Assembly (NCBI GenBank): GCA_019636815.1
Contig: JAHBWT010000029.1
Coordinates: 1-43,450 of the forward strand
Source of the DNA: Nitrospira sp.
GTDB lineage: Bacteria; Nitrospirota; Nitrospiria; Nitrospirales; Nitrospiraceae
Reading direction: 5' to 3'
DNA length: 43,450 bases
The notes below the pieces were generated by a model. It had not been told where the DNA came from, made no database searches, and saw nothing but the letters and a program-made list of their open reading frames with translations. Both the position numbers and the translations under genes were made by a program. Positions within the stretch are counted from its first letter, which is position 1. Each line of letters begins with the position of its first letter. Of the stretch, positions 22,384 to 40,393 are shown piece by piece.

Positions 22384-24240
22384 TCATTTCCCGGCCTTCC
22401 GCGCCTTGCGTCGGTCATCCGGATTCAACAGGCGCTTTCGCAGGCGTAGGTTCTGCGGAGTGATCTCGACCAGCTCATCTGCGCCGATGTATTCCAACGC
22501 GAATTCAAGCGTCATGTCCCGGGGAGGTGTCAGCACCAACGCTTCGTCGGAACCGGATGCGCGCATGTTGGTGAGATGCTTTTCTTTGCACACGTTCACG
22601 TCGAGGTCTTCATCCCGGCTATTTTGACCCACCACCATTCCTCGGTACACGTCCACTCCCGGGCCGATGAACATGGTGCCGCGCTCCTGAGTCATGAAGA
22701 TGGCGTATCCCGTGCTGAGACCGTCTTCATGAGCGACCAAGGAACCGTGCGGGGCCACGATCAGGTCCCGCTCCTCGGCCGGTTCATAGGCCGCAAAAAC
22801 ATGGTGCATAATGACGGTTCCACGGGTCTTTGCCAGCAACACGTTCTTCAATCCCATGATGCCGCGTGTGGGAATGTGGTATTCCAAATGCATTTCACTG
22901 GTGCCGACATCTGAATGAATCAACCGCATGTGGCGCATTTCACCCCGGCGTTTGCCGATTTCCTCGATGACTGCGCCCTGATAGGTCTCCGGCACCTGGA
23001 TGGTCAACTCCTCGTATGGTTCCAGGACGGCGCCGCCCTCACGATGAAGAATGACCTCCGGTTGCGAGACTTGAAGCTCGTACCCTTCTCGTCGCATCTG
23101 TTCGATCAACACGGCGAGATGGAGTTCGCCTCGGCCCGCCACGAGGAAGCGGTCGGCGCTATCCGTCTCACTGACACGCAGCGACACGTTCGTCTCCAAT
23201 TCTTTGAAGAGCCGCTCTCGCAAGTGGCGTGACGTGAGAAACTTCCCTTCCCGCCCGGCGAAGGGGCTGTTGTTGACGGAAAACGTCATCTGAACGGTCG
23301 GCTCATCGATCGAGACGCGCGGGAGCGCAACCGGCCTCTCGGCATCGGCGATGGTATCGCCGATACTGACTTCATCGAGGCCCGCTACGGCGACGATTTC
23401 GCCGGCTTCCGCGCGCTCCGTATCCGTTCGCTCGAGGCCGGCGTAGACGGCCAAATCCGAGACCTTGCCGGGGATCTGCGCCCCGTCCTTCCCAAGCACC
23501 ACCACGTTCTGGCGCCGGGCGATCGATCCGGATTGGATCTTGCCGATGCCCATCTTGCCTTTATAAGGGTCTTGAGCCAGAGCCAAGACCAGAATTTGGA
23601 GCGGAGCGTCGGCGTGAATGGCCGGGGCGGGGATCTTCTCCAGCACGACGTCGAGCAGCGGAGCGATCTCGCTGCCAGGCTTGTTGATGTCGAGCGTTGC
23701 AATGCCTTTGATCGCAGACGTGTACACGATGGGGAAATCGAGTTGTTCGTCGGTCGCTCCCAGGTGAACGAAGAGGTCGAAGGTGCGGTTGACCACATCG
23801 TCGACCACGGCGTCCGGTCGATCGATTTTGTTGACGACGACGATGGCTCTGTGGCCGAGCGAGAGGGCCTTGCGCAACACGAAGGTCGTCTGCGGCATCG
23901 GGCCTTCCTTGGCGTCGATCAGCAGCAACACGCCGTCTACCATCCGGAGCGTCCGTTCGACTTCACCGCCGAAATCGGCATGGCCGGGAGTGTCGACGAT
24001 ATTGATTTTTACGCCGCTGTAGATGACGCTGGCGTTTTTGGCTCGGATCGTGATCCCTCGTTCGCGCTCCTGGTCCATCGAATCCAAGATGCGTTCACCC
24101 ATATCGTCGATCTTGCGATGGACATGAGTCTGGCGGAGCAATGCATCGACCAAGGTCGTCTTGCCGTGATCAACGTGGGCGATGATCGCGATGTTGCGAA
24201 TATCGCTTCGGCGGTCGTGAGGAGCGCGGACGGTAGTCAT
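22384..24240 (-). CDS. typA: Ribosome-associated GTPase TypA/BipA
   Basis: 618 residues from the ATG at 24240, the length of TypA. G1 is [16 protein letters not shown]3 is [15 protein letters not shown] and G4 is VNKIDRPDA, followed by EF-G-like domains with [19 protein letters not shown]-type blocks and a basic C-terminus. TypA acts on the ribosome, aiding 50S assembly and translation under stress or cold. The upstream region is unusual: a minus-strand terminator 25 nt before the ATG and a structured RNA candidate further up, suggesting controlled readthrough or a separate small RNA. Confidence 0.95.
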
Positions 24241-24264
24241 GGTGAAGATGTTTCCTATGACGAC

Positions 24265-24294
24265 AAAAAAAAGACGCCTCCTTCGTAAGGCGTC
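24265..24294 (-). terminator. Rho-independent terminator just upstream of typA
   Basis: On the minus strand GACGCCT (24294-24288) pairs with AGGCGTC (24279-24273) around an 8-nt loop and is followed by eight T (24272-24265). It ends 25 nt before the typA ATG, so transcripts from further upstream would stop in the typA leader. Confidence 0.75.
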
Positions 24295-24365
24295 GTGAGC
24301 AGTATACCCGAACTTCGGCACCTCAAACAAGCGAAGGGTGGTACCTGTCAACCCACTTTAGAAAC

Positions 24366-24470
24366 GTCCGGTTTATATGTGATGGGCTTCACCGCCAGTA
24401 GATCTCGTGGCGGCAGAGCCCGTTTTCGCCACGGGTGCGCCTTCGCCTGGGTGAGCTACACCAACCGGAC
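24366..24470 (-). ncRNA. Structured RNA candidate in the typA/PBP intergenic region
   Basis: The 105-nt segment is closed by an 8-bp perfect stem (GTCCGGTT at 24366-24373 with AACCGGAC at 24463-24470). Read on the minus strand it holds further hairpins: GGTG-TAGCT-CACC, CCCGT-GGCGAAA-ACGGG and GCCGCCA... TGGCGG. The 5' part (7-bp acceptor-like stem, GTGTAGCTCA, a 7-nt loop) recalls a tRNA, but there is no T-arm sequence, so it is not a normal tRNA. The strand is set by the minus-strand terminator 72 nt further on. It may be a small RNA or a cis-acting leader; a decayed tRNA is also possible. Confidence 0.4.
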
Positions 24471-24575
24471 ATATGATGTGCTAGTTACAACGATCAGCGT
24501 CTTGCTTGAGTTTTCGGAAAACGCATTGTAAGGTTTTGCGTACCTCAGACTCGCGTCTACAGGACTCCATACACG

Positions 24576-35363: not shown

Positions 35364-35437
35364 TGGGGGATCGTCTAGCGGTAGGACGTCAGTCTCTGGA
35401 TCTGACTACCTAGGTTCGATTCCTAGTCCCCCAGCCA
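35364..35437 (+). tRNA. tRNA-Gln (CTG anticodon)
   Basis: 74 nt with encoded CCA. Acceptor stem TGGGGGA/TCCCCCA, D arm GTCTAGCGGTAGGAC, anticodon loop CTCTGGA (anticodon CTG), T arm CTAGGTTCGATTCCTAG. The anticodon stem has a T-T mismatch at its loop end. It is nearly identical to the second copy outside the anticodon arm. Confidence 0.93.
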
Positions 35438-35470: not shown

Positions 35471-35544
35471 TGGGGGATCGTCTAGCGGTAGGACGCCGGC
35501 CTTTGGAGCCGGCTACCTAGGTTCGATTCCTAGTCCCCCAGCCA
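35471..35544 (+). tRNA. tRNA-Gln (TTG anticodon)
   Basis: 74 nt with encoded CCA; same acceptor, D and T arms as the upstream copy. The anticodon arm is CCGGC-CTTTGGA-GCCGG, giving anticodon TTG. Duplication with a changed anticodon arm is the simplest origin of the pair. Confidence 0.93.
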
Positions 35545-40315: not shown

Positions 40316-40393
40316 GGTCCCATCGTCTAGCCTGGCCTAGGACGGAGCCCTCTCAAGGCTTAAACACGGGTTCGAATCCCGTTGGGACCACCA
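40316..40393 (+). tRNA. tRNA-Glu (CTC anticodon)
   Basis: 78 nt with encoded CCA. Acceptor GGTCCCA/TGGGACC, D arm TCGTCTAGCCTGGCCTAGGACG, anticodon loop CTCTCAA (CTC), T arm CGGGTTCGAATCCCG. A tyrosine recombinase gene ends 4 bp beyond it, so the 3' half is a likely integration site. Confidence 0.93.

What the first reader, a model, noticed from the sequence alone, without database searches (positions are those of the whole stretch)
24265..24470. Structured RNA and terminator ahead of typA
On the minus strand a 105-nt segment closed by an 8-bp perfect stem is followed by a strong terminator that ends 25 nt before the typA ATG. This is the layout of a regulated leader or of an independent small RNA. 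The tRNA-like start without a T-arm is unusual.
Basis: partly seen in the sequence, partly recalled or inferred. Interest (0 to 1): 0.55.

Follow-up and report, generated by a model that had tools for sequence, protein, structure and literature searches.

The report
typA start-site terminator beside transposon remnant
The "structured RNA" is a decayed fragment of a jumping gene, but the terminator next to it is a real stop-signal-like hairpin that Nitrospira and close kin keep at the very start of the message for the ribosome-assembly GTPase TypA, where it probably limits how much of that message is completed.

Summary
The letters are as reported, but they form two unrelated things. (A) The 105-nt stem-closed segment (24470-24366, minus) is the middle of a ~144-bp internally deleted IS1202/ISNCY-family insertion sequence. 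The closing stem is the inner part of its terminal inverted repeats, and the interior is the last ~25 codons of the transposase. It matches full-length copies in sister genomes (E to 1.2e-17) and was not seen upstream of typA in relatives. It is not a tRNA, riboswitch or sRNA. (B) The terminator (24294-24265) is a different, conserved element. A promoter (CTTG-20/21 nt-TATAnT) is followed after about 4-10 nt by a hairpin with an invariant CGCC/GGCG core, then usually a 5-9-nt U-tract, then the typA ribosome-binding site. Its covariance model hits 108 of 110 genomes of the family once each; the two misses have no detected typA. Flanking pairs covary (48 two-sided cells against 12.4 shuffled). 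Predicted +1 lies at or within about 4 nt of the hairpin, leaving no room for an aptamer or antiterminator. Best reading: a minimal start-site attenuator of typA, unlisted in Rfam, regulator unknown. Attenuation itself is inferred; no transcript data were available.

The parts
24346..24489 (-). Internally deleted remnant of an IS1202/ISNCY-family insertion sequence, outer ends TGT...ACA
   Evidence: Matches full-length copies in same-genus genomes over the transposase 3' end and right end (E 1.2e-17, 80% over query 27-122); transposase of a full copy hits NF033594 ISNCY at 402.6 bits, cut-off 250; alignments of both ends
24463..24489 (-). Decayed left terminal inverted repeat of the insertion sequence; its inner 10 nt are the 5' arm of the reported stem
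   Evidence: Alignment with the left end of L009; 0 of 2000 shuffles score as high
24375..24455 (-). Last ~25 codons of the transposase gene, reading frame slipped near the stop codon; contains the internal pairings that the fold shows
   Evidence: Reads AHPWRKRALPPRDLLAVKPIT (my reading) against THPWRKRTLPPRELLAAGPIT-stop in L006; DNA alignments
24346..24374 (-). Right terminal inverted repeat of the insertion sequence; its inner part is the 3' arm of the reported stem
   Evidence: Shared wholly or in part with the 22 loci printed
24325..24330 (-). -35 element of the typA promoter (TTGTTT), 18 nt before the -10
   Evidence: CTTG stands 20 or 21 nt before the -10 in 124 of 125 leaders
24301..24306 (-). 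-10 element of the typA promoter (TATACT)
   Evidence: TATAnT at this place in 72 of 74 same-genus typA upstream regions and 55 of 55 further leaders
24273..24294 (-). Start-site hairpin GACGCCTT-acgaag-GAGGCGTC, predicted +1 at about 24294
   Evidence: Invariant core and covarying flanking pairs; family-wide model hits
24265..24272 (-). U-tract (T8) directly after the stem, completing an intrinsic-terminator signature
   Evidence: At least 7 T in 55 of 72 genus leaders and 55 of 55 further leaders
24250..24256 (-). Probable ribosome-binding site AGGAAAC
   Evidence: Sequence; AAGGAA at a like place in many relatives
22384..24240 (-). typA (bipA) gene, 618 codons, the gene downstream of the hairpin
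   Evidence: Relatives in 76 of 79 same-genus genomes

Best explanation
Two things lie side by side. Upstream is a dead, internally deleted IS1202/ISNCY-family insertion sequence whose terminal repeats make the reported stem; it is not part of the typA leader because it lies upstream of the typA promoter. Downstream is a minimal transcription attenuator of typA. RNA polymerase starts at, or within about 4 nt of, the 5' base of a GC-rich hairpin, makes the hairpin and a U-tract within its first ~30 nt, and at that point either releases a ~30-nt RNA or goes on into typA. Since the leader holds nothing but the hairpin, the U-tract and the ribosome-binding site, the choice cannot be made by an aptamer or a competing antiterminator; it must be fixed by the sequence or set by something acting in trans on the nascent hairpin or on polymerase (a cold-shock protein is a candidate). 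Shown: conservation, position, covariation of the stem, rarity of the layout in the sampled DNA. Inferred: the start site, that it terminates, and that termination is regulated.
For: Promoter and hairpin, in that order, in 72 of 74 examined same-genus regions by the automated search, of which one (G060) has a broken core stem, and in 55 of 55 further leaders. Model R1 hits 108 of 110 family genomes, one hit each, in 14 of 15 genera; among 54 genomes of other genera, 53 hits lie 16-311 nt upstream of typA on the same contig and strand and the 54th (G270) sits in a split assembly; the two family misses have no detected typA. Core CG, GC, CG pairs are invariant in 106 of 106 distinct rows while flanking pairs change in step: 48 two-sided cells against 12.4 shuffled, covariation 0.258 against 0.133, 0 of 500 shuffles as high, at most 0.107 when slid. 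Many flanking pairs are G-U, which suits RNA and not a DNA palindrome. Spacing from the -10 varies (3-10 nt) but the U-tract usually abuts the stem, as a terminator needs. Where the neighbour is divergent (27 genomes; no upstream gene on that strand to terminate) the T-run is longest (mean 7.9) against 6.2 for a co-directional neighbour (23). Only 20 comparable terminator-like sites in 689 kb, and the two abutting a -10 are the typA ones.
Against: No RNA-seq or end mapping was available; the start site is predicted from the -10 alone. The U-tract is 5 or fewer T in 13 of 72 genus leaders and nearly gone in G034, G058 and G039, while the hairpin stays, which a pure terminator role does not explain. 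An invariant core, rather than covarying GC pairs, hints at sequence recognition beyond termination. The neighbour comparison is confounded by shared ancestry. The model was built from the genus and its E-values are rough.
Confidence: 0.58

Rival explanations
1. 5'-terminal stabiliser: the hairpin caps the typA mRNA so that pyrophosphohydrolase and RNase E cannot get at the 5' end, giving a long-lived message; the U-tract is a single-stranded spacer or ribosome landing site and does not terminate.
For: Predicted +1 lies 0-4 nt from the stem; structured 5' ends stabilise mRNAs in E. coli, RppH and RNase E both needing single-stranded 5' termini (PMC3997798 passages); the genome encodes an RNase E/G; the hairpin is kept where the U-tract is lost.
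Against: Does not predict 7-9 U directly abutting the stem in most leaders, nor an invariant core; the number of unpaired 5' nt is not conserved.
Confidence: 0.2
2. Terminator or insulator for transcripts arriving from upstream, which typA's own polymerase passes because the site is too close to the promoter.
For: Terminator-like site between two genes; 23 genomes have a co-directional response-regulator gene upstream.
Against: 27 genomes have a divergent neighbour and carry the longest T-runs; the site lies downstream of the typA promoter.
Confidence: 0.1
3. DNA operator: the inverted repeat at +1 is a repressor site.
For: Palindrome at the start site with an invariant core.
Against: G-U cells (for example U-G in 50 and G-U in 29 of 106 rows at the two pairs flanking the core) break DNA symmetry but not RNA pairing; the one-sided U-tract is unexplained.
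Confidence: 0.07
4. The 105-nt segment is itself a functional structured RNA or degenerate tRNA.
For: 8-10 bp closing stem and z -2.61.
Against: Explained along its length as an insertion-sequence remnant; no Rfam or ARAGORN match; not seen upstream of typA in relatives.
Confidence: 0.02

Closest known systems
Intrinsic (Rho-independent) terminators used as leader attenuators
   Same: GC-rich hairpin directly followed by a U-tract between promoter and gene
   Different: Hairpin begins at or next to the predicted +1; no room for an alternative antiterminator, leader peptide or aptamer; no Rfam family matches
Terminators of the E. coli metY-rpsO operon read through with CspA-family proteins (PMC12562117 passages)
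   Same: Ribosome and translation genes downstream of terminators; the window genome encodes one cold-shock-domain protein; BipA matters for E. coli growth and 50S maturation at low temperature (PMC8313970 passages)
   Different: A link to typA in Nitrospira is conjecture; one terminator at the start site rather than several between genes
5'-terminal stem-loops that stabilise mRNA (ompA/papA type; PMC3997798 passages; ompA recalled)
   Same: Hairpin within 0-4 nt of the predicted 5' end
   Different: U-tract abuts the stem; unpaired 5' length varies
IS1202 family (ISNCY) insertion sequences (PMC10132070 abstract and section 18)
   Same: Outer ends TGT/ACA, related terminal repeats with an extra inner repeat near the right end, ~430-440-aa transposase, 16-nt target duplication in a sister copy (L009)
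   Different: Window copy lacks most of the transposase and has no visible target duplication

Membership tests
IS1202/ISNCY insertion sequences | Transposase of the family in the full-length element | tested here: met
   Two full copies in sister genomes hit NF033594.2 over its cut-off, 402.6 and 405.7 bits; none detected in the window's own genome
IS1202/ISNCY insertion sequences | Related terminal repeats with TGT and ACA outer ends | tested here: met
   Window ends align with L009 (left), and with L009, L027 and L006 (right); left end 0 of 2000 shuffles; family description from PMC10132070
IS1202/ISNCY insertion sequences | Target-site duplication | tested here: inconclusive
   16-nt duplication read by eye around L009; none seen around the window remnant; PMC10132070 section 18 describes long, short and absent duplications
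Intrinsic terminator | GC-rich stem directly followed by a U-tract | tested here: met
Intrinsic terminator | Causes transcript release | not testable with these tools
   No transcript data or assay
Riboswitch or leader-peptide attenuator | Aptamer, leader ORF or alternative antiterminator between +1 and the terminator | tested here: not met
   Only 3-10 nt between the -10 and the stem
Any Rfam family | Match at the gathering score | tested here: not met
   Window: three tRNAs elsewhere only; stretch: one chance hit, E 5.1; 20 sampled relatives' leaders: none
tRNA | tRNA gene model match | tested here: not met
   ARAGORN and Rfam tRNA find none at this place

The most novel reading that the evidence does not exclude
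A family-wide minimal attenuator in which the terminator is the first thing transcribed: its 5' arm starts at or near +1, so read-through is set by start-site choice or by a trans-acting factor that reads the invariant CGCC/GGCG hairpin, and it tunes the ribosome-assembly GTPase TypA, perhaps in the cold, in Nitrospira.
Probability: 0.3. Interest if true: 0.65.

Novelty: new variant of a known kind. Interest (0 to 1): 0.48.

Why it matters
If the hairpin terminates, it is among the smallest attenuators one can imagine and shows control of a ribosome-assembly GTPase in a nitrifier lineage whose gene regulation is little known; searches of the held library listed no paper on it. It also shows how a transposon end beside a true leader can pass for a structured RNA.

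Tried and rejected
Rejected: tRNA or Rfam RNA; independent small RNA made of segment plus terminator (different origins, promoter between them); integron attC site, considered when repeats with a conserved 3' end appeared and dropped once the transposase reading frame was seen; terminator of the upstream gene; leader as coding sequence: a 655-codon frame runs through it in the window, but many relatives have open frames of only 623-625 codons, little more than the 618-residue query. Model hits outside the family (G341, G105, G306; E 0.5-0.93) are not near typA or lack a detected typA, and are taken as chance. Rows dropped: G020, G042 and G070 have no detected typA; G011 and G074 upstream regions were not fetched for the comparison; G027 has no -10 in the expected place and G033 is cut at the contig end. 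G060 was fitted with a false 4-bp stem because one core pair is broken. Alignment A1 holds 63 of the 72 genus leaders, and A2 adds 46 of the 47 distinct further leaders (G033 left out). In some searches identical rows count once. One search gave a wrong reference for G060, which I replaced by L087 before aligning.

Full report
What was claimed. A 105-nt segment closed by an 8-bp stem, then a strong terminator 25 nt before typA, read as a leader or small RNA. Both features are in the sequence at the stated places. Folding is only moderately unusual (z -2.61 and -1.93).

The 105-nt segment. A DNA search of 79 same-genus genomes gave matches in 25, but to different parts of the query. Query 27-122 (the segment) matched places in G075, G027, G059, G013, G016 and G018 that are not the typA places of those genomes (best E 1.2e-17; compare); a shorter stretch (about 105-138, the right terminal repeat) matched many more; query about 136-211 (promoter and terminator) matched typA upstream regions without the segment (G074, G001, G022, G032, G062). 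Around the first set lies an insertion sequence: a transposase of about 430-440 aa hitting NCBIfam ISNCY (402.6 and 405.7 bits, cut-off 250), outer ends TGT...ACA, and in L009 a 16-nt duplication at both ends (read by eye). These fit the IS1202 family as described in PMC10132070 (abstract and section 18 read). The window segment reads AHPWRKRALPPRDLLAVKPIT, against THPWRKRTLPPRELLAAGPIT-stop in L006, followed by the right terminal repeat; upstream of it is a decayed left repeat (0 of 2000 shuffles as good). The reported stem is the inner part of the two repeats facing each other; the tRNA-like start is the junction of left repeat and transposase remnant. No ISNCY transposase gene was detected in the window's own genome. 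By eye, close relatives G053 and G051 keep the PBP1A-typA neighbourhood with about 28 nt where the remnant sits.

The terminator. TypA was found in 76 of 79 same-genus genomes; 73 upstream regions were fetched and compared with the window. In 72 of these 74, TATAnT stands 45-110 nt before the aligned typA start, followed 3-10 nt later by a hairpin (4-10 by the expected stem; G060 has a broken core) and then usually a U-tract. CTTG precedes the -10 by 20 or 21 nt in 124 of 125 leaders. A covariance model from 63 leaders was run over 395 genomes of the phylum: 111 had a match at E <= 1, namely 108 of 110 genomes of the window's family (54 of its genus, by construction in part, and 54 of other genera) and three weak ones outside. 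Of the 54 in other genera, 53 lie just upstream of typA and one in a split assembly. The two family genomes without a match have no detected typA. Of 13 genomes outside the family that were also searched for typA, nine had it at 51-55% identity, and none has a model match near it.

RNA or DNA. Over 106 distinct rows, the core pairs CG, GC, CG never change and the next CG pair stays paired in 105; the pairs around them change together (48 two-sided cells against 12.4 shuffled; score 0.258 against 0.133; at most 0.107 when slid). The number of pairs with a two-sided change (4) is not itself beyond the shuffles (160 of 500). G-U pairs are frequent, which favours pairing in RNA. Relatedness inflates such scores, so the slid control is the fairer one.

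Is the layout unusual? A strict scan for hairpin plus T-run found 8 sites in 289 kb (the window plus stretches of its genome, both strands) and 12 in 400 kb of G001; only the two typA sites have a -10-like hexamer just before the stem. In the own genome the CGCC..GGCG+T6 pattern occurs at typA and one other place.

How it may work. The -10 (recalled rule: start about 6-9 nt downstream) puts +1 at the stem's first base or up to about 4 nt before it. Everything a terminator needs is then made in the first ~30 nt, with no room for a sensor. The T-run is longest in genomes with a divergent neighbour (27; mean 7.9) and shorter with a co-directional one (23; mean 6.2), so it is hardly there to stop upstream transcripts; ancestry confounds this. 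Against a pure terminator: 13 of 72 genus leaders have 5 or fewer T and keep the hairpin. A 5'-end stabiliser is therefore the chief rival (PMC3997798 passages; RNase E/G present). Cold-shock-protein antitermination is a testable guess: CspA-family proteins act as antiterminators at metY-rpsO (PMC12562117 passages), BipA is needed for E. coli growth and 50S maturation at suboptimal temperature (PMC8313970 abstract and passages), and the genome has one cold-shock-domain gene. None of this was tested in Nitrospira.

Identity and prior reports. Named relatives are Nitrospira (N. moscoviensis, Ca. N. defluvii, N. lenta and many MAGs). That Nitrospira are nitrifiers is recalled. No Rfam family matches the window stretch or 20 sampled relatives. 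Paper searches listed nothing on a typA leader in Nitrospira; only listings were seen in those, and most subscription journals are not in the library.

Verdict. The structured RNA is a transposon remnant (about 0.97). The terminator is a real, conserved, typA-specific start-site hairpin (about 0.95); that it attenuates typA is the best explanation (0.58).

Noticed in passing
G034, G058 and G039 leaders (L063, L064, L104): The U-tract is nearly lost while the hairpin is kept, a natural test of what the hairpin does without termination.
   Followed up: partly
L133 (G027 upstream of typA): The promoter and the 5' arm of the hairpin are replaced by other sequence; only the 3' end gcgtcttttttg and the ribosome-binding site remain. 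Possibly a rearrangement or an assembly fault.
   Followed up: no
L174 (G382): About 120 nt of foreign-looking sequence sits between the hairpin and typA.
   Followed up: no
L019, L020, L023, L030, L031, L007 (contig ends): ISNCY ends lie at contig ends in several MAGs, so this insertion sequence is probably multicopy there and breaks assemblies.
   Followed up: no
L214, L217: These stretches hold runs of N inside typA (assembly gaps or masking).
   Followed up: no
window 35364-35437, 35471-35544 and 40316-40393, plus strand: Two tandem tRNA-Gln genes (anticodons CTG and TTG) and a tRNA-Glu (CTC).
   Followed up: no
stretches of G000 and G001: Canonical hairpin-plus-T terminators are rare by a strict scan (20 in 689 kb), which may mean heavy use of Rho or of weaker terminators in Nitrospira.
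   Followed up: partly
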